A stretch of DNA of 21,458 bases from a virus. Of the stretch, positions 935-21,458 are shown piece by piece. Both the position numbers and the translations under genes were made by a program. Numbering within the stretch: the stretch's first letter is position 1; the number at the start of each line of letters is the position of its first letter. The notes under the pieces are model-generated. The model saw nothing but the letters and a program-made list of their open reading frames with translations, had not been told where the DNA came from and did not search any database. The DNA lies in IMG/VR virus record IMGVR_UViG_3300030943_000188, positions 1-21,458 of that record; one strand, 5' to 3'.

Positions 935-1203
935 AAATGTTTTATAACTTCATAACTCGAATATTTCAGTTTTTTAATATAACCGAGTTTTTCTAATTCC
1001 GCTAGATCATCATCCAATTCCCCTGATTTAGCTATACGTACTCTAGTTTTCAAAGATACATCTCTAGTTTTAAACTCACCATCGTATCTTTTCTCTTGAT
1101 CAAGCATAAAGACAATCTCAAATAGAAGGTCTTCTATTTGAGGTGTCTCTATAATTCCTATCAAGTTTTTGATTTTAACAATGTTAAAATTTATAGGTGT
1201 CAT
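925..1203 (-). CDS. Hypothetical small protein with possible winged-helix-like C-terminus (92 aa)
   Basis: The ATG at 1203 shares a base with the TGA of the uvsX C-gene (TGATG), which supports this start over the TTG one codon earlier and points to coupled translation. The N-terminal half is helical and hydrophobic (EDLLFEIVFMLDQEKRY). The C-terminal part, with DDLAELEKLGYIKKLKYSSYEVI, has the helix-then-strand pattern of the recognition end of a winged helix, where a leucine-rich helix is followed by a beta-hairpin. That resemblance is only suggestive. T4 has gene 40 between uvsX and 41, but I see no similarity to it. Confidence 0.7.
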   Translation of the reverse strand: MTPINFNIVKIKNLIGIIETPQIEDLLFEIVFMLDQEKRYDGEFKTRDVSLKTRVRIAKSGELDDDLAELEKLGYIKKLKYSSYEVIKHLWV

Positions 1204-2825
1204 CAATCTTTAAAATGTTCGATTGAATTTCCTTCTAACGCATCAATAAATGATGTATCAATTTCAGCGTTTGTAACCATTGGAGCATCATTATCAGTAT
1301 CATCTTTCATTGAAGCTCTTTCAAGTTCCTCTGTCATTTCGAGTATATCATCATGACTGTTAACATCAGGTAGTTCAAAAGTTTTCTTTATCACTTTATC
1401 ATCAAGTTCTCTCAATACTTCATCTGTGAATACCTTTGCAGTAAAAAGTTCTATCAGAGGAATTTCTCCACCAAGATGTTTACATACTAACGTTCTTGCT
1501 GTTTCCTTTGGAAGAGCGAAAAGTAATTTACCATCTAGACTAGAAAATTCATGACAAGTTTTTTGTTCAGCTGGAGAGAGTTTAGAATGTTCCTTCTCTG
1601 TTAACGCCTTTCCTCTCACAACTCCACAATTCTCCCAAGATACAAAATTTTCTAATCCAACATATTTATTGATTGGTTTATAAAATGGAATATGAAATTG
1701 TACTTTAATTGGTTTTGCAAAACGATTTTTATTTGGAGTAACTGTTACAATGATGCCAACTTTTGCCTTTTCAACATTTTTTGATTTTGCAATTTCTTCA
1801 GCTTCCTTATCTTCCATCTTTGATTTAGATAACATGAATATGATTGAAGCATTATATTTAAGACCTCCGCCGCCTGCGATCGTGTTTGAAGGAAAATAAC
1901 CACCTATAACTGCATACGTATGAGCCAAATAGATACATGGGATACCATTCATTGCACAATCATTACCGACAACTCTAAAGGTTCTACGAATAGCCTGTTG
2001 TTTGGTCATATCTCGTTTATCATTTCCTTCAGTAGTATCTGTTTTTTCTTTATTTGAAGAAAGGTTACCCAATGAGTCAAGAACCACAATTACCTTCGGC
2101 GGAATTTTACCTTCCTTTTTCATATTGAAGAAGGTTTCATTTAACTTTGCCATATACGTAGCAAACTCCTCTATTGTTGCTATAGGTTCATGTCGAAGTT
2201 TGGCAGGATCAACACCAATTTTAGATACAAACTTTAAATCTATTGCACCTTCTGTATCAAAATAGATTGGGGTATACCCCATCATCTGAGCTTCGCGACA
2301 TATACTTAAAGCAATGAATGTCTTGCCTGTATTATGGCTGCTTATTCCAGTGCCTGACCAATATCTGTGGTTATCATGTTTTACCTCAAAATCATAAACC
2401 ACCTCATTTATACATTTTGTGATATTTACAACTCTTTGATACCCTGAAAGTGTTAACAAAAAATCTTCTTGTGTCAATTCTTTTGCAAACTTCCATTCTG
2501 TCATCGTTTCAAATTTATGATCCTCAGAACATTTAGTTTTAAAATCGAATTCTGTGGTAATATCATAAATAGGGCGCGAGTGTTTAATATAAAAATCCCC
2601 TACTTCATTATAACCATCAGGTGTAGCAATAAGGAATGACTTTTCTTGATAATTTTCAATTAAATCCTTAATTTTAATTTTCTTTGAGTTTGTTGATGCG
2701 TACTCATTAAATTTCATCCTAATGATTTCTTCTGAAGATTCAGAAATAGGTTTTCCTAAAAATGTTTTAAGTTCATTAGCATTAAAAACATATTCGAGTT
2801 CCTTTTTAATTTTTTCGATTTCCAT
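1203..2825 (-). CDS. uvsX: UvsX/RecA-like recombinase, C-terminal part, fused behind a split-intein C-fragment
   Basis: The first 165 of 540 residues are an intein C-fragment and the rest is recombinase. Visible intein blocks are a block-B-like TEFDFKTKCSEDHKFET (about 91-107, with the SxDH histidine), block F VVYDFEVKHDNHRY (142-155) and block G ending SSHN (162-165). There is no room between blocks B and F for a homing endonuclease. Thr166 would be the +1 nucleophile and begins TGKTF, the second half of the Walker A loop. The recombinase continues with a DTEG segment (190-193), Walker B VIVVLDSLGNL (245-255) and a Gly-rich GGGGLKYNAS loop. Joined to its N-part it would be about 449 residues, against 391 for T4 UvsX. 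It would form the presynaptic filament for strand exchange. Residues 1-60 are an unusual extension. The start is in frame with the upstream gene, three bases after its TAA. Confidence 0.9.
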   Translation of the reverse strand: MEIEKIKKELEYVFNANELKTFLGKPISESSEEIIRMKFNEYASTNSKKIKIKDLIENYQEKSFLIATPDGYNEVGDFYIKHSRPIYDITTEFDFKTKCSEDHKFETMTEWKFAKELTQEDFLLTLSGYQRVVNITKCINEVVYDFEVKHDNHRYWSGTGISSHNTGKTFIALSICREAQMMGYTPIYFDTEGAIDLKFVSKIGVDPAKLRHEPIATIEEFATYMAKLNETFFNMKKEGKIPPKVIVVLDSLGNLSSNKEKTDTTEGNDKRDMTKQQAIRRTFRVVGNDCAMNGIPCIYLAHTYAVIGGYFPSNTIAGGGGLKYNASIIFMLSKSKMEDKEAEEIAKSKNVEKAKVGIIVTVTPNKNRFAKPIKVQFHIPFYKPINKYVGLENFVSWENCGVVRGKALTEKEHSKLSPAEQKTCHEFSSLDGKLLFALPKETARTLVCKHLGGEIPLIELFTAKVFTDEVLRELDDKVIKKTFELPDVNSHDDILEMTEELERASMKDDTDNDAPMVTNAEIDTSFIDALEGNSIEHFKD

Positions 2826-2828
2826 AAA

Positions 2829-3131
2829 TTATGATTTAATTATTTTATGATTTTGAGTTAAATCAGATTTTAATTCGTATATTCGTACAAATTCATCGCC
2901 AACCAAACATCCTTCCTCTCCAGCAAGCGCCAAAGACCTACGGTTTGGTAATCCTCCAAATAAGCTGCCGCTCAAAGCCGCATTTAAAATATAACTACCG
3001 GTGCCAATATATTCATCTATTTTACAGAAAGGGGAATCTATAAGCATATCCCCATTAGGACTCACCTTATTGAGTATCTCATTCAAATCTGAAAAACTCG
3101 ACTGACTTGTTGCTGCAACTTTTTTTGCCAT
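2829..3131 (-). CDS. uvsX: UvsX/RecA-like recombinase, N-terminal part, ending in a split-intein N-fragment
   Basis: This 100-residue protein has 74 residues of recombinase N-terminus followed by 26 residues of intein. The extein part ends GGLPNRRSLALAGEEG, the first half of a P-loop (GEEG/TGKT). Cys75 starts the intein with CLVGDEFVRIYELKSD, a typical block A with catalytic Cys1. The gene then stops with TAA at 2829-2831. After one codon (TTT) the C-gene begins in the same reading frame. An N-fragment this short is atypical: most split inteins break at the endonuclease site and leave about 100 residues. It resembles the short-N class reported for AceL-TerL and for environmental UvsX inteins. 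Alone the protein cannot bind ATP, so function should require trans-splicing. It is the first gene of its unit. Confidence 0.9.
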   Translation of the reverse strand: MAKKVAATSQSSFSDLNEILNKVSPNGDMLIDSPFCKIDEYIGTGSYILNAALSGSLFGGLPNRRSLALAGEEGCLVGDEFVRIYELKSDLTQNHKIIKS

Positions 3132-7004: not shown

Positions 7005-7379
7005 TTATAAAGATAAAATTATTAATGCATTTTTCAATCCTTTTTCAAGTGCTTCTTCATAAGTTTTAAATCTAGTTGCAATATCACCACAATCTTCACC
7101 AATCTTTGTATTAATTCTATACATCCATGACACATAATGAGGATCTGAATAATAGTATGAAGAAGTTACTTCAACAGAAATTTCATGTTTTTCTCTTAAC
7201 CATTTCTGGAGAAGAGATTGAGTAACTGCTGCAATTGCTTTTTTATTACAATAATCAAGCAAATAATCAAAAGATAATTCACCTGAAGATATTAGATAAC
7301 CATTATTACAATCCTTTTGATAAAAATCAGTATGTGTTAATAATTTAGCTGTGTCAAAACTTATTAATTGTTCTTTCAT
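7005..7379 (-). CDS. Tandem accessory-family paralogue 1 (LLQKWLRE subtype, 124 aa)
   Basis: The family core is visible in three places: N-terminal EQLISFDTAKLL, central AVTQSLLQKWLREKHEISVEV and C-terminal FKTYEEALEKGLKNALIIL. The segments between them (a Tyr/Asn-rich stretch before the centre and a strand-rich one after it) differ in length and sequence from the other copies. This suggests a conserved scaffold with variable surfaces. No catalytic residues stand out. It overlaps no neighbour (two bases from the next copy), consistent with one polycistronic array. The function is unknown to me. Relatives are common as uncharacterised proteins in Bacteroidota phages. Confidence 0.85.
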   Translation of the reverse strand: MKEQLISFDTAKLLTHTDFYQKDCNNGYLISSGELSFDYLLDYCNKKAIAAVTQSLLQKWLREKHEISVEVTSSYYYSDPHYVSWMYRINTKIGEDCGDIATRFKTYEEALEKGLKNALIILSL

Positions 7380-7381
7380 AA

Positions 7382-7762
7382 TTATAAAAGTTTTAATGTT
7401 TCTTGTAATGCTTCTTCTAATGCTTCTTCATAAGTTTTAAAATTTTTATTTGAAGTATTGATAAAATAATAATTTGAGCTACTTTTTATTAAATATTGAT
7501 AAAAAGCTACTTTTATTGTTTTATTAATATAATTATTTTCAGTGATACAATCTATATGAATTTCAATTTGATGTATATCTCTTAACCATTTCTGAAGAAG
7601 AGATTGTGTAGTACAATACAAATAATTAGGACGTCCAACCTCACTATAAATTATCTTTTCATTTTCATAGTAAACATTGCCTCTTCTTTGAGCATAACAT
7701 TCTGAAAATCCTTTACAATCTGCTAATTTTGCGGTTTCAAAGCTTATTAATTGTTCTTCCAT
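7382..7762 (-). CDS. Tandem accessory-family paralogue 2 (LLQKWLRE subtype, 126 aa)
   Basis: It shows the same three landmarks: EEQLISFETAKLADCKGF at the N-terminus, TTQSLLQKWLRDIHQIEIHI in the middle and FKTYEEALEEALQETLKLL at the C-terminus. The first landmark is followed by a CYAQRRGNVYYENEK variable part, and the second by Asn/Tyr-rich strands. It is closest to paralogue 1 in the first dozen residues and in the final helix. It directly abuts paralogue 3, whose stop is adjacent to this ATG. Short stretches of near-identical DNA encode the LLQKWLR block in the two genes, which fits fairly recent duplication. Confidence 0.85.
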   Translation of the reverse strand: MEEQLISFETAKLADCKGFSECYAQRRGNVYYENEKIIYSEVGRPNYLYCTTQSLLQKWLRDIHQIEIHIDCITENNYINKTIKVAFYQYLIKSSSNYYFINTSNKNFKTYEEALEEALQETLKLL

Positions 7763-8083
7763 TTAAAGTGATTTTAAGATTTCCTGTAATCTATGTTCAA
7801 GAGCATCTTCATATGTGTTAAATAATTCATTCCGATCCCATGATAATTTACCTCTAAAAATATAGTATTTTTGTTCATCGGAAGGAATTAAACATGGCAG
7901 TATGGCGACATGCATATTATATTTTTCCCTTAACCATTTTTGAAGAAGCGATTGTGGTACACACGGTAAATCGGTAAAATCACCATTTTTCCTCTTATCA
8001 ATATAGAAATCTGAGTGTTTTTCATCAAACCCTTTATCTTTTGCAACCTCAGCGGTTTCATAACTTATTAATTGTTCAGTCAT
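7763..8083 (-). CDS. Tandem accessory-family paralogue 3 (LLQKWLRE subtype, 106 aa)
   Basis: This is the shortest of the subtype. It has TEQLISYETAEVAKDKGFDE at the start, CVPQSLLQKWLREKYNMHVA in the centre and FNTYEDALEHRLQEILKSL at the end. The variable segment before the central block is shortened to about 15 residues, which accounts for most of its smaller size. It shares an ATGA overlap with paralogue 4, so they are coupled. The conserved helix-strand core and lack of enzyme motifs suggest a binding protein, but this is inference. Confidence 0.85.
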   Translation of the reverse strand: MTEQLISYETAEVAKDKGFDEKHSDFYIDKRKNGDFTDLPCVPQSLLQKWLREKYNMHVAILPCLIPSDEQKYYIFRGKLSWDRNELFNTYEDALEHRLQEILKSL

Positions 8084-8505
8084 AAATAAGTAATATTTTT
8101 AAGTGCATCTTCTACTCCATATTCCAAAGCATCTTCATATGATTCAAACTCTGGACAATTTTTATCATCTACTCTTTTATTTAATATATCACCATTTACA
8201 TTAACATAATAATAATGCAAGATTGGATCATAGAATGCGTAAACATGAATATTTTGAGTTTCTCTCAGCCATTTTTGTAAAACAGACAAATATGGGGCGG
8301 GTATTGAATATTTATGACCACCACCCCATCTTTCTATTTCAAAATCATAATTATTCGCAAACAGATGGTGTGTCGCAACATGTTGTTTATTAATAACGTA
8401 ATTTTCCAAAAGAAGACCATAATTATAATGATAAAAACAATCTTCCTCGAATCCTTTAAGTAAGGCTAAATCTGCCACTTCTGACTTTACTATTTTATCT
8501 TCCAT
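8080..8505 (-). CDS. Tandem accessory-family paralogue 4 (LLQKWLRE-like, 141 aa)
   Basis: A more divergent copy. The N-terminus is KSEVADLALLKGFEEDCFYH, the centre reads APYLSVLQKWLRETQNIHVY and the C-terminus is FESYEDALEYGVEDALKNI. It carries a longer variable region before the centre, including a His- and Gly-rich stretch (HVATHHLF, WGGGHKYSIP). The APYLSVLQKWL sequence is intermediate between the SLLQKWLRE and APLYQ subtypes, supporting common descent of both. It is separated from paralogue 5 by one base. Confidence 0.85.
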   Translation of the reverse strand: MEDKIVKSEVADLALLKGFEEDCFYHYNYGLLLENYVINKQHVATHHLFANNYDFEIERWGGGHKYSIPAPYLSVLQKWLRETQNIHVYAFYDPILHYYYVNVNGDILNKRVDDKNCPEFESYEDALEYGVEDALKNITYL

Positions 8506-17712: not shown

Positions 17713-17838
17713 TTAACATTTATATTCCAAATAAATAAAACTACACAACAAAAATAAAAATAAAATAATGAAGTAAAACACAACCCTTAACATAAAATGA
17801 TAGTGCCTTATAAAATTATCATAATCGTTATACGGCAT
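17713..17838 (-). CDS. Very small single-span membrane protein (41 aa)
   Basis: The ATG at 17838 shares one base with the TGA of the polymerase gene (TGATG). The frame runs 41 codons to TAA at 17713-17715. After a polar N-terminus (MPYNDYDNFIRHYHFMLR) comes a strongly hydrophobic run, VVFYFIILFLFLLCSFIYL, long enough for one membrane span, and then EYKC. Translational coupling to the polymerase fragment is likely. The function is unknown. Confidence 0.65.
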   Translation of the reverse strand: MPYNDYDNFIRHYHFMLRVVFYFIILFLFLLCSFIYLEYKC

Positions 17839-18803
17839 CAAAATAGGTTTTTTGCATAAATTAAATTGGAAGGTATTTCCTGAAAACCCATTGTTTTGAT
17901 ATACCTATTGAAAGGTTCAACAATTACCTTTGCAAACTGAGCATCATAATTTATTGGCGGTGCAAATTCGTATGGAAGATCTCCTGGTAGGTAAGCAAAT
18001 ACCTCGCATTCTGCAGAAGTTGCATAAAATTTTACCTTATCAGATGTTCGTATATGTCTGTATTTTCCCTTCCATTTTGAATTATTCAATTGATAGTTAT
18101 AATTAGCACCACCTCTTACATGGTAAGGACATTTACTTGCAAGTTTAACTGAATTCTTATCATCAAGAACAAATTTTTCATAATCTCCAAGGCTCATCAC
18201 TTTACTTATATCCTCAGGACTTTGCATTATAAAATCCTTTTTATATTCCTTTAGCTTACGTACAAGATCAACATACCTAATGGTTTTTTGTTCCCTTAAA
18301 AGTTGAATGATAAGTTCATTGAGTACCTTCTTTGCAAATTTTGGTGTAGAACCTTGTGCAATTTCTATACCTACACATTTTATCTTTGTTTGTGGCGGGA
18401 ATCTCATACCTGGGTCTTTCCATGCAAGATCCAATATATATTTTTTCTTTGCGATCATCATAACAGAGTGTGATATCTTTTCGAGTTCCAATACTTGTAA
18501 ATTTTCAGTGTTGAATTTCTTTGCGTATTCATCAAATTTTTCATCCAACATTCCATCTAATCGATATTCCTTTATTTTCAATATGAAAGCAACACCATCT
18601 ACTTTCTCAGAAGGTACAAACCCACATGAATCCATCACTGGTTTAAATGTTACATATGAAGAATTATGTACTAAAATATCATTTGCTATAAAGGTATGAA
18701 ATTCATCAGCTACCTCTATATCATATACAAATTCATCAGAAAATTCTCCTATTTGCTCACAACTTTCAATATCTTCAATTATGTATTTTTTTTCTATATT
18801 CAT
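17838..18803 (-). CDS. Family B DNA polymerase (T4 gp43-like), C-terminal part, fused behind a split-intein C-fragment
   Basis: Residues 1-47 are an intein C-fragment: block F EFVYDIEVADEFHTFIAN (24-41) and block G DILVHN (42-47), ending in His-Asn. Ser48 is the +1 residue. The rest (48-321, 274 residues) matches the end of T4 gp43 after catalytic motif C. It has SSYVTFKP at the junction (motif C would be GDTD/S), IAKKKYIL like the KxY motif (117-124), GIEIAQGSTPKF (145-156) and CPYHVRGGANYNY (225-237). The length agrees with the roughly 280 residues following motif C in RB69/T4. The exonuclease, fingers and most of the palm are missing and must come from another gene whose product ends with an intein N-fragment. 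That gene is not in the window. Upstream is a non-coding region and then plus-strand genes. Confidence 0.9.
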   Translation of the reverse strand: MNIEKKYIIEDIESCEQIGEFSDEFVYDIEVADEFHTFIANDILVHNSSYVTFKPVMDSCGFVPSEKVDGVAFILKIKEYRLDGMLDEKFDEYAKKFNTENLQVLELEKISHSVMMIAKKKYILDLAWKDPGMRFPPQTKIKCVGIEIAQGSTPKFAKKVLNELIIQLLREQKTIRYVDLVRKLKEYKKDFIMQSPEDISKVMSLGDYEKFVLDDKNSVKLASKCPYHVRGGANYNYQLNNSKWKGKYRHIRTSDKVKFYATSAECEVFAYLPGDLPYEFAPPINYDAQFAKVIVEPFNRYIKTMGFQEIPSNLIYAKNLF

Positions 18804-18808
18804 TAATC

Positions 18809-18860
18809 TTTTTATATGTTATATAATGTAAACCAATATATGTTTCGAGATGTAAATATA
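18809..18860 (-). promoter_or_regulatory. Candidate promoter before the polymerase C-half
   Basis: On the minus strand a TTATATTTACATC stretch (TATATTTA at 18853-18860) resembles the first half of P1-P3. TATAAAAA (18809-18816) lies five bases before the ATG, like their second half. Here the two parts are about 37 bases apart instead of adjacent, so the match is weaker. Either could be the true promoter element. Confidence 0.4.
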
Positions 18861-18900
18861 ATTAAAATTCGAACAAAACTCATATGTTTTAATTTTTCTC

Positions 18901-18990
18901 TCCCTATAGTTTTTTAAAAGGGGGATGAAGTTACTACTTATACTCCTGCCGTGGGAAAGGTTTTGCATAGTTTAGTTAAAAAATGTTAAA
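18901..18990 (+). repeat. Direct repeat, copy 1
   Basis: This copy starts TCCCTATAGTTTTTTAAAAG. It includes a 31-base block (18920-18950) that is identical in copy 2 and begins GGGGGATGAAGTTACTACTT. It ends in an identical 20-base block, TTTAGTTAAAAAATGTTAAA (18971-18990). The spacing between the two blocks is the same in both copies, while the bases between them differ. A short CCCT/AGGG pairing flanks the T-rich start. Confidence 0.85.
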
Positions 18991-19137
18991 TTTATATAGT
19001 GATCCAGGGTGATTTTTTAATGATTGGAAGTGTGTAATAAGTTACACCAACAAATGAATTTATATACACGTGGGTTATTCGAGGTGAAACGGATAATTGA
19101 TAAAATATATGATTTAAAGTATAAATTTCTCACCCGC

Positions 19138-19226
19138 TCCCTTAAGTTTTTTAAAGGGGGATGAAGTTACTACTTATACTCCTGCCACGAGAAAGGTTTC
19201 GTCTTATTTAGTTAAAAAATGTTAAA
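19138..19226 (+). repeat. Direct repeat, copy 2
   Basis: This copy starts TCCCTTAAGTTTTTTAAAGG. It has the identical 31-base block at 19156-19186 and the identical 20-base block at 19207-19226, each offset by 236 bases from copy 1. One A is missing before the G-run. Differences between the copies concentrate after CTGCC and in the following GTTT region. It ends about 50 bases before the glycosyltransferase ATG. Confidence 0.85.
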
Positions 19227-19261
19227 AAATAATAGGTGGTTTTTTGATGTAATTGAGTATA

Positions 19262-19269
19262 TATAAAAT
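19262..19269 (+). promoter_or_regulatory. Promoter-like TATAAAAT before the glycosyltransferase
   Basis: TATAAAAT on the plus strand ends eight bases before the ATG at 19278, at the same distance as in the minus-strand P3 leader. It follows a GAGTATA stretch and lacks the TATATTTGCC half of P1-P3. Confidence 0.45.
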
Positions 19270-19277
19270 AAAAACAA

Positions 19278-20330
19278 ATGAAAACAAATAAAATTCTATT
19301 TATATTGAAGAAAAGAAGCGATTATGATCTTACACAAAATTATAATGAGAGTTTAAGCACAGGCTTATATAATTCAGCAAAATTTGTGGATCAAATGCTT
19401 TATTTTGCAGGTATTGAATCAAACATGGTTGTAGTTAATGATAATAATGATATTGATAGAGAGGTAACAAAATATAAACCAACACATGTTATCATTGAAG
19501 CTCTTTGGGTTGTTCCAGAAAAGTTTCAAATACTTCATAAACTTCATCCAAACGTAAAATGGATAATACGCATGCATAGTGAAATCCCATTTATTGCTAA
19601 TGAAGGAAATGCAATGACATGGCTTAGTGAATATGTAAAATATGATAATGTTATAATAGCCTTTAACGCTAAAAGAATTTTTGAAGATTTTAAATTTTAT
19701 ATAAATACACAAAATGATTGGTCATACAAAAAAGATGATAGAGTGATATATTTACCTAATTATTTTCCTCAGGATTATAAAATCAAAAGATTTAATAAAA
19801 ATAATGAAGTTATTAATATAGCATGTTTTGGTGCAATTAGGCCTCTTAAAAACCAACTAAATCAAGCAATAGCAGCCATAAAGTTTGCTGAATGTGTTGG
19901 CAAGATACTTCATTTTCATATCAACATAGGCAGATATGAAATGAAAGGCGATTCTGTTCATAAAAATTTAATCGGACTATTCCAAGAATTGTCAAACCAA
20001 AAACATAAATTAATTGAACATACTTGGATGCCAAGAGAAGAATTTTTGGAATTATGTGAAAGTATGGATATTGGTATGCAAGTATCATTCTCAGAAACTT
20101 TCAATATTGTTGGCGCTGATTTAATAAGCAAAGGTATTCCATTGGTTGGATCACAGGAAATTGGATGGATGAATCCGATATTTATGTCAAACCCAACAAA
20201 TACAAACAGTATTTCATTTAAATTATGGCTTACATATTTTTTATCAAAATTTAACGTGTTAACAAATCAATATCTATTAACATATTATACAAATAAAACT
20301 AAGAAAATATGGGTTAACTATTTTAAATAA
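19278..20330 (+). CDS. GT-B-fold glycosyltransferase (GT4-like, 350 aa)
   Basis: The N-terminal half has Rossmann-like features: KTNKILFILKKRSDYDLTQN, then KPTHVIIEALWVVPEKFQIL, and NVKWIIRMHSEIPF, resembling the acceptor domain of GT4 enzymes. The C-terminal half has IACFGAIRPLKNQLNQAIAA (181-200), where the donor domain typically starts (G-x-x-R-P-x-K-N), and a donor-site segment FSETFNIVGADLISKGIPLV (271-290), close to the usual E-x7-E region. The predicted activity is sugar transfer from a nucleotide sugar. In phages this may decorate DNA, virion proteins or host glycans; which one is unknown here. It starts the plus-strand block and is followed by two hairpins, so it may be a single-gene transcript. 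Confidence 0.82.
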   Translation: MKTNKILFILKKRSDYDLTQNYNESLSTGLYNSAKFVDQMLYFAGIESNMVVVNDNNDIDREVTKYKPTHVIIEALWVVPEKFQILHKLHPNVKWIIRMHSEIPFIANEGNAMTWLSEYVKYDNVIIAFNAKRIFEDFKFYINTQNDWSYKKDDRVIYLPNYFPQDYKIKRFNKNNEVINIACFGAIRPLKNQLNQAIAAIKFAECVGKILHFHINIGRYEMKGDSVHKNLIGLFQELSNQKHKLIEHTWMPREEFLELCESMDIGMQVSFSETFNIVGADLISKGIPLVGSQEIGWMNPIFMSNPTNTNSISFKLWLTYFLSKFNVLTNQYLLTYYTNKTKKIWVNYFK

Positions 20331-20437: not shown

Positions 20438-21458
20438 ATGAATAATATAAGTAAATATATCGCTATATCTGATTTTTGTTTGGTTGAATATGAGATGAAC
20501 CGTGATAATGTTACGTTAAATCTTTCTACATTAGGAGCAAAAATAGCTACAACTAAATTAGGAACTAAACAATATTTCAATACCAATAAACCAAATTCAT
20601 TAGGTATAACAAATAATGTGCTTGAATTTAATGCTGAACCTTCAAATTCTTTAAGAACCTCATGGTGGATAAATCCGTTAGACATAACACAATATGTTAA
20701 TTTGTTCGATTCATCTATAAATGTATCAAGTGTAGGACAATATAATCATGATACAATAAAATTACACTTTGTTTCAGGATATAATTTTGACGATATCGCT
20801 GGTTTTTTATGTCAGATAAGAGCGATGAGTGAATCTGGGAACCTTGTGGATCTTTCAAACTTTACATATATAAAACAAGCGGATGCATTAACATCATCCG
20901 CAGTTGTTCAATTTTCATCAAATGTTTTACATCTAGGTAATAAATTTTACGATAAATATATTCTATTTAAAATACCTTCTGTGCAAGCTTTATCATCAGA
21001 TAGGTCTACACTTTTAGGAAATTCATTATTAATAAACGCTTTAAGTGATATTTATATAACATATAGTGAAATAGAAAGCGTAGTAAACAATACATTTATT
21101 GCCAATGAATATTCAAATGTTCAAATACCGGTATCAAGTGTGGCCGATAATTTTAATTGTATCATATATGAATCTACATATGGCGATTTTATTGAATACT
21201 ATGCAACCTGGGCAGATGATGTTATAGGACAACATATGGCAGATATAGAAAGCGGTAGAATAAAATTATATACATCAAATAATCCAAACGATAATTATCA
21301 AGAATTCGCTGATATTTATGGTGAAGCATCTGCCAAGTGGGTGTTAATGCATGAGATATATGTTTATGAAAGTATGATTGGAAACGGTGGTGGAGCATCA
21401 TTATTAACACAAAAATTTGTTTTTACACAGGAGGATAATTTTGCAAGTTCAAATATGT
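20438..21458 (+). CDS. Probable virion structural protein, N-terminal part, cut by window edge
   Basis: An open frame from the ATG at 20438 to the right edge gives 340 residues of a longer protein. The N-terminus reads MNNISKYIAISDFCLVEYEM, with no signal peptide. The body is Ser/Asn/Thr-rich and strand-rich (LRTSWWINPLDITQYVNLFD, then LHFVSGYNFDDIAGFLCQIR). A Gly-rich NGGGASLLTQKF lies near the edge. I recall similar uncharacterised virion proteins in large Bacteroidota phages, beginning NxISKYIAISDFxLLEYExN, but cannot name the part. Tail, neck or baseplate are all possible. The composition and position after the strand switch fit a structural module. A TATAAGAT motif precedes it. Confidence 0.65.
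   Translation, partial: MNNISKYIAISDFCLVEYEMNRDNVTLNLSTLGAKIATTKLGTKQYFNTNKPNSLGITNNVLEFNAEPSNSLRTSWWINPLDITQYVNLFDSSINVSSVGQYNHDTIKLHFVSGYNFDDIAGFLCQIRAMSESGNLVDLSNFTYIKQADALTSSAVVQFSSNVLHLGNKFYDKYILFKIPSVQALSSDRSTLLGNSLLINALSDIYITYSEIESVVNNTFIANEYSNVQIPVSSVADNFNCIIYESTYGDFIEYYATWADDVIGQHMADIESGRIKLYTSNNPNDNYQEFADIYGEASAKWVLMHEIYVYESMIGNGGGASLLTQKFVFTQEDNFASSNM

What the first reader, a model, noticed from the sequence alone, without database searches (positions are those of the whole stretch)
17838..18803. Polymerase C-half carries a second, different split intein, and its partner gene is elsewhere
The gene opens directly with a 47-residue intein C-fragment (YDIEVADEFHTFIAN, DILVHN) and Ser+1, followed by gp43-like sequence. 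The insertion point lies in catalytic motif C (GDTD/S), so neither half alone can be active. Upstream is 474 bases of non-coding DNA and then the opposite strand, so the N-half must be at a distant locus. Rhodothermus phage RM378 also has a two-gene polymerase, as I recall, but without this intein arrangement.
Basis: partly seen in the sequence, partly recalled or inferred. Interest (0 to 1): 0.9.

Follow-up and report, generated by a model that had tools for sequence, protein, structure and literature searches.

The report
Dispersed split-intein half of phage polymerase
This huge-phage gene encodes only the last part of a DNA-copying enzyme, fused to half of a self-splicing protein element, so the enzyme must probably be stitched together from separately made pieces; the kind of element is known, but finding its two halves apart in a phage is unusual.

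Summary
ORF 17838-18803 (minus strand, 321 aa) is a 47-residue intein C-fragment, Ser+1, then the palm/thumb end of a gp43-like family B polymerase. The insertion point, directly after the motif C aspartate, is proved by two relatives with an empty site (L209, L210). In relatives the partner N-fragment begins with Ser, not Cys, and carries the Arg-His pair reported for cysteine-less inteins; the nearest solved structure is the Aes123 PolB1 split intein. So this is a known kind: cysteine-less split PolB inteins, published from Aeromonas phages, phage MIJ3 and a sheep-gut metagenome.

Unusual: (1) in this phage group the polymerase has a further, intein-free break, so three chains should give two. 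(2) In 104 of 107 related loci the intein N-region lies within 2.2 kb upstream; it is absent from this record and from one other 44-kb contig (L032). (3) Near relatives show empty, uninterrupted, split-with-endonuclease, split-with-decayed-endonuclease and apparently dispersed states of one site.

'N-half elsewhere' is inferred: the record is a 21-kb fragment and a misjoin just upstream is not excluded, although both flanks match the same phage lineage. Splicing was not tested.

The parts
17838..18803 (-). Polymerase C-piece gene: intein C-fragment plus gp43-like palm/thumb end
18663..18803 (-). Intein C-fragment, residues 1-47, ending HN
   Evidence: F21 E24 V26 Y27 D28 E30 H36 F38 N41 L44 H46 N47 S48 invariant in 28 aligned C-pieces
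18660..18662 (-). Ser+1, first residue of the C-extein (aligned to RB69 gp43 Ser624)
17841..18659 (-). Remaining C-extein: rest of palm and thumb, ends ...AKNLF
18804..19277 (.). 474-base non-coding spacer where relatives carry the middle piece (and often an endonuclease-like ORF)
   Evidence: no endonuclease or N-piece remnant found
18911..18990 (.). 80-nt direct repeat, copy 1, inside the spacer
19147..19226 (.). 80-nt direct repeat, copy 2 (89% identical)
   Evidence: 31-nt core twice in window, 0 in shuffles; 23-nt core not in viral contigs
20438..21457 (+). Divergent gene beyond the spacer, same phage lineage (56% identical to a gene of record G014)

Best explanation
The gene makes the C-terminal piece of a gp43-like family B replicative polymerase of a huge phage, headed by the C-fragment of a cysteine-less (Ser1/Ser+1) split intein. 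Elsewhere in the genome the phage should encode the intein-free N1 piece (exonuclease, first part of the palm) and a middle piece (end of fingers, palm up to the motif C Asp) ending in a roughly 120-residue intein N-fragment that starts with Ser. The two intein fragments associate, fold into a HINT domain, splice by oxyester chemistry and Asn47 cyclisation, and join ...DTD to SSYVTF..., rebuilding motif C. N1 then assembles non-covalently with the spliced chain. In this phage the middle piece has been moved away from the C-piece, probably by a rearrangement with a breakpoint in the spacer. Shown: C-fragment with all splicing residues, exact insertion site, purifying selection, absence of the N-fragment from the record. 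Inferred: existence, place and sequence of the partner, splicing, and assembly with N1.
For: Splice-junction and block F/G residues invariant across 28 C-pieces; polymerase homology starts exactly at Ser48, aligned to RB69 Ser624; empty-site relatives L209 and L210 with one uninterrupted middle+C ORF; partner N-fragments in relatives: Ser1, the Arg-His of motif NX and the Thr-x-Asp-His-Ser of N3 invariant in 11 of 11 (motif NX from PMC10189870, passages). AlphaFold model of the uninterrupted relative L109 has a beta-rich domain at the intein (119-275); best PDB match Aes123 PolB1 split intein, TM 0.82 by target, 31% identity. pN 0.20-0.29 against pS 0.50-0.79 between window and L024/L109/L120, in intein and extein alike. 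Intein N-region within 2.2 kb upstream in 104 of 107 C-anchored loci, but none in the window and none in the 44-kb contig of L032. Both sides of the window's spacer match record G014 at 54-58%, where the two genes are 75 kb apart on one strand. N1 in a separate gene in 13 of the 21 different records searched with phrog_262; of the other 8, one (G002) has N1 and middle in one ORF and 7 show no N1 (contigs of 13 to 91 kb).
Against: The N-piece of this phage was not found; the record is 21 kb of a genome that is probably several hundred kb. No other contig shows the same junction. The spacer contains an 80-nt repeat pair, a place where assemblies can misjoin. Among 67 N-anchored loci none is a clear N-piece without a C-piece downstream (6 without: L127 and L135 end within 600 bases, L171-L174 weak matches), so dispersed N-pieces have not been seen. 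No experiment.
Confidence: 0.7

Rival explanations
1. The split intein is real but the halves are adjacent in the true genome: the window is misjoined in the spacer, and the middle piece lies 1-2 kb upstream as in the relatives.
For: 104 of 107 C-anchored loci have the intein N-region within 2.2 kb, including the three nearest intein-bearing relatives L024, L109 and L120; the spacer holds two 80-nt repeats; no second contig has this junction; in G014 the flanking gene is 75 kb away.
Against: Both flanks belong to the same lineage; G+C is even across the junction, 0.27-0.30; no remnant of endonuclease or N-piece in the spacer; L032 is a second contig with a C-piece and no N-piece.
Confidence: 0.22
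2. The C-piece is an orphan: the partner was lost and another polymerase copies the genome, so this gene is a remnant.
For: No N-piece in the record.
Against: Full-length intact frame, all splicing residues kept, pN well below pS in intein and extein; lies in the conserved replication module with UvsX and DnaB.
Confidence: 0.05
3. The intein C-fragment does not splice; the pieces work as a non-covalent multi-subunit polymerase.
For: This polymerase already tolerates one intein-free break between N1 and the middle piece.
Against: Conservation of His46, Asn47 and Ser48, which splicing needs; the related Aes123 PolB1 and PolB16 OarG inteins splice in vitro (PMC11923092, PMC10189870, passages); an unspliced intein at motif C would sit in the active site.
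Confidence: 0.03

Closest known systems
Aes123 PolB1 split intein (T4-like Aeromonas salmonicida phages; PMC11923092, passages; PDB 9hth)
   Same: PolB-type phage polymerase gene, cysteine-less Ser1/Ser+1, typical split (120 + 39 aa), same fold
   Different: About 30% identity to the intein of relative L109 in the structural alignment; no report in the passages read of separated halves or of the extra N1 break
PolB16 OarG split intein (sheep gut metagenome; PMC10189870, passages; PDB 8cpn/8cpo)
   Same: Cysteine-less intein of a PolB gene; sequence match to window residues 6-50
   Different: Atypical split with a 15-residue N-fragment; the window has the short typical C-fragment
Pseudomonas phage MIJ3 split PolB intein (PMC6892783, passages)
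   Same: Jumbo phage, Ser block A, block G ending HNS, PolB
   Different: orfs 153-155 adjacent, HNH endonuclease ORF between the halves
Tenacibaculum phage PTm1 ORF-239/240/241 (AP019524) and Lak megaphages
   Same: Same C-piece (34-43% identity), N1 + middle + C pieces, Ser after DTD; PTm1 ORF-239 is annotated as an intein-containing split polymerase precursor
   Different: Middle piece about 1-2 kb upstream of the C-piece on the same strand
Nanoarchaeum equitans Neq Pol split intein (named in PMC10189870; genomic details recalled, not looked up)
   Same: Archaeal family B polymerase with split intein, genes recalled as far apart and inserted at motif C
   Different: Archaeal, thermophilic, no third polymerase piece recalled

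Membership tests
Inteins (class 1), C-terminal fragment | Blocks F and G with penultimate His, terminal Asn and nucleophilic +1 residue | tested here: met
   TIGR01443 27 bits, cut-off 15.6; H46 N47 S48 invariant in 28
Split inteins | Gene starts within the intein; N-fragment encoded in a separate gene | tested here: inconclusive
   Starts within the intein; separate N-fragment gene seen in relatives, not for this phage
Cysteine-less (Ser1/Ser+1) PolB split inteins | Ser+1 at the C-junction | tested here: met
Cysteine-less (Ser1/Ser+1) PolB split inteins | Ser1 and motif NX Arg/Lys-His in the N-fragment | tested here: inconclusive
   Met in 11 of 11 relatives aligned; the window's own N-fragment is unknown
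Cysteine-less (Ser1/Ser+1) PolB split inteins | Trans-splicing activity | not testable with these tools
   needs expression
gp43-like family B DNA polymerase | C-terminal palm/thumb homology continuing motif C | tested here: met
   empty-site alleles
Fractured genes (adjacent halves, endonuclease between; definition recalled, paper not held) | N-half, free-standing endonuclease and C-half next to each other | tested here: not met
   No N-half or endonuclease upstream in the window; met in L024 and others

The most novel reading that the evidence does not exclude
A phage replicative polymerase made from three separately encoded chains, two of which are joined by a split intein whose halves have become unlinked in the genome (predicted about 75 kb away on the + strand if a single inversion relative to record G014 is responsible), as the end of a series empty site > uninterrupted intein > split with endonuclease > endonuclease decayed > dispersed that can be read among close relatives, at PolB and in part also at UvsX.
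Probability: 0.5. Interest if true: 0.66.

Novelty: new variant of a known kind. Interest (0 to 1): 0.5.

Why it matters
Split inteins are usually seen in only one state. Here five states of the same polymerase insertion site occur in phages whose polymerase C-parts are 58-79% identical, so the steps from mobile intein to obligate trans-spliced gene can be ordered and tested by experiment. If the halves are truly unlinked, one recombination with an empty allele can no longer remove the intein, and the phage's replication depends on protein splicing. The group is also a source of cysteine-less split inteins for protein engineering.

Tried and rejected
Single-sequence search of viral contigs with the window protein found no relative. 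The Pfam polymerase model in the own record found only this gene. The window's 23-nt repeat core was not found in viral contigs. Nearest-clade N-pieces in genome contigs: none. Rfam on the window: none. The repeats do not fold better than shuffles. The gene 19278-20330 (glycosyltransferase-like by eye only; no Pfam match) has no match in phages or in 5 relatives' records. Idea that the window is a chimera of unrelated organisms: rejected, because the right-hand gene 20438-21457 has its homologues in the same huge phages. Idea that the UvsX stop is a recoded codon: the stop is TAA, so the TAG=Q code used for the Lak relatives would not remove it. Paper searches without results. Dassa et al. 2009 is not held; it is cited from recall and from the reference list of PMC6892783.

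Full report
1. What is there. On the minus strand, 17838-18803 encodes 321 aa. Residues 1-47 are an intein C-fragment ending in His-Asn, residue 48 is Ser, and the rest is the C-terminal part of a gp43-like family B polymerase. The homology to RB69 gp43 starts at residue 48, aligned to Ser624, i.e. directly after the catalytic motif C aspartate (identity of that aspartate recalled). The intein C-fragment is not like that of the UvsX gene in the same window.

2. Exact insertion site. Two related records have no intein: L209 9992-11179 reads ...VVVYNDTD|STYITFDPLLKSCDA..., L210 9977-11173 reads ...IYMDTD|SCYVTFDPVLKSCDY... in one ORF. The window's ...HN|SSYVTFKPVMDSCGF... aligns to these directly after the junction. 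The site is therefore motif C, between DTD and S.

3. The missing partner. The record is the whole 21,458-base virus record and contains no other polymerase or intein N-fragment. In relatives the N-fragment sits in a middle-piece gene: L024 216-926, L120 7992-8690, LR756500 (L002) 7533-8303. It starts with Ser in 11 of 11 aligned, with invariant Arg-His (motif NX, described in PMC10189870, passages) and Asp-His-Ser.

4. How unusual the separation is. Of 107 loci found with C-piece alignments, 80 have the intein N-region in a separate ORF upstream, 24 in the same ORF as the C-piece (at least one of these, L085, is an atypical split with most of the intein on the C side), and 3 have none; the largest distance is 2,115 bases. 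Of the 3, L045 and L097 start within 1.1 kb of a contig end; L032 has 9.9 kb upstream, and its 44,426-base contig, scanned in overlapping stretches, has none. The 107 include near-identical contigs. From the other side, 61 of 67 N-anchored loci (L108-L174) have a C-piece downstream; 2 of the 6 others end within 600 bases and 4 are weak matches. So the window and L032 are the outliers.

5. A series of states. Among the nearest relatives (C-pieces 58-59% identical to the window) the same site is empty (L209, L210), filled by an uninterrupted intein (L109 8001-9641), split with an endonuclease-like ORF between the halves (L024 976-2124), split with a 187-base gap in which one frame still reads IIKHGEEKGLKIWNDYYN, by eye like the repeats of those ORFs (L120), or reduced to the C-piece (window). 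The ORFs between the halves are related to each other, but the two scanned (L024's PolB ORF and L120's UvsX ORF) match no endonuclease model of Pfam, nor does L024's match NCBIfam; the name endonuclease rests on PTm1's annotation 'VSR endonuclease', whose ORF they resemble (L005 rows). UvsX shows a similar series at its P-loop: empty in L024, L209 and L210; uninterrupted in L109; split with such an ORF in L120; split by one in-frame TAA and three bases in the window.

6. A polymerase in pieces. In this group the polymerase also has an intein-free break: an N1 gene ends near phrog_262 position 497-518 and the next piece begins near 469-497. N1 was found as a separate gene in 13 of 21 different records. 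Distances from N1 to the C-piece range from about 6.6 kb (Lak-B5) to 231 kb (Lak-C1); in the intein-free G014 and G015 N1 is 40 and 58 kb from the middle+C gene. So the base state is two genes, and with the split intein three. I found no paper describing this in the library searched (listings only for most papers); the Lak paper PMC8346664 has no occurrence of 'intein', and PMC12363816 reports polymerase genes split by endonuclease sequences in Jug phages (passages).

7. Which side moved. The gene on the far side of the spacer, 20438-21457 (+), is 56% identical to a G014 gene at 104547-105527 (+), in a cluster of genes all on that strand, while the G014 polymerase middle+C gene is at about 180.7-181.9 kb, also +. 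In LR756500 the two are 36 kb apart on one strand. In the window they are 1.6 kb apart and divergent. A single inversion with one breakpoint between middle piece and C-piece would give this and would place the middle piece some 75 kb to the right of the window on the + strand. That is a prediction, not an observation; a misjoin at the 80-nt repeats would give the same picture.

8. Selection. Between window and L024, L109, L120: pN 0.26-0.28, pS 0.65-0.76 over the gene; intein part alone pN 0.20-0.23, pS 0.50-0.60. Synonymous sites are near saturation, so no exact ratio is claimed, but both parts look to be under purifying selection.

9. Structure. The AlphaFold model of L109's 546-aa protein is good only in the intein (mean pLDDT 66.5; much of the extein below 50, as expected without N1). 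Best PDB match: Aes123 PolB1 split intein 9hth, TM 0.82 normalised by the target, 31% identity; RB69 polymerases appear lower in the list.

10. Mechanism. Shown: sequence anatomy, site, conservation. From established knowledge of class 1 inteins: Ser1 N-O acyl shift, transesterification to Ser+1, Asn cyclisation, O-N shift. Inferred: partner, splicing in this phage, non-covalent assembly with N1.

11. Verdict. A genuine split-intein polymerase C-piece of a known kind, with an uncommon and not yet proved dispersal of its halves.

Noticed in passing
window 1203-3131 (-): UvsX is interrupted at the P-loop (GEEG|TGKT) by a Cys1/Thr+1 intein split atypically: N-fragment 26 aa, C-fragment 164 aa, separated only by an in-frame TAA and three bases before the next ATG. 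L109 has it uninterrupted, L120 split with an endonuclease-like ORF, L024/L209/L210 lack it.
   Followed up: partly
L085 5183-9613: PolB intein with a very short N-fragment (after GDTD: SCAYSTLIDVIF), an endonuclease-like ORF, then a long C-fragment: resembles the atypical split of PolB16 OarG.
   Followed up: no
L003 3659-4489: In Lak-C1 the intein N-fragment contains a TAG right after DTDS that must be read as an amino acid (code 15), so the split intein there also depends on stop recoding.
   Followed up: no
window 18911-18990 and 19147-19226: Two 80-nt direct repeats, 89% identical, in the divergent intergenic region; no Rfam match, no stable fold, core not found in viral contigs.
   Followed up: partly
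L032 9938-10930: Second polymerase C-piece with an intact intein C-fragment and no N-piece anywhere in its 44-kb contig.
   Followed up: partly
L002 50-3357: LR756500 also carries a split intein in what looks by eye like a ribonucleotide reductase gene, with an ORF between the halves.
   Followed up: no
window 7005-8505 (-): Four consecutive short genes with similar starts (M..EQLISFETA / EDKIVKSEVA) and a shared LQKWLR motif, apparently a tandem paralogous family (seen).
   Followed up: no
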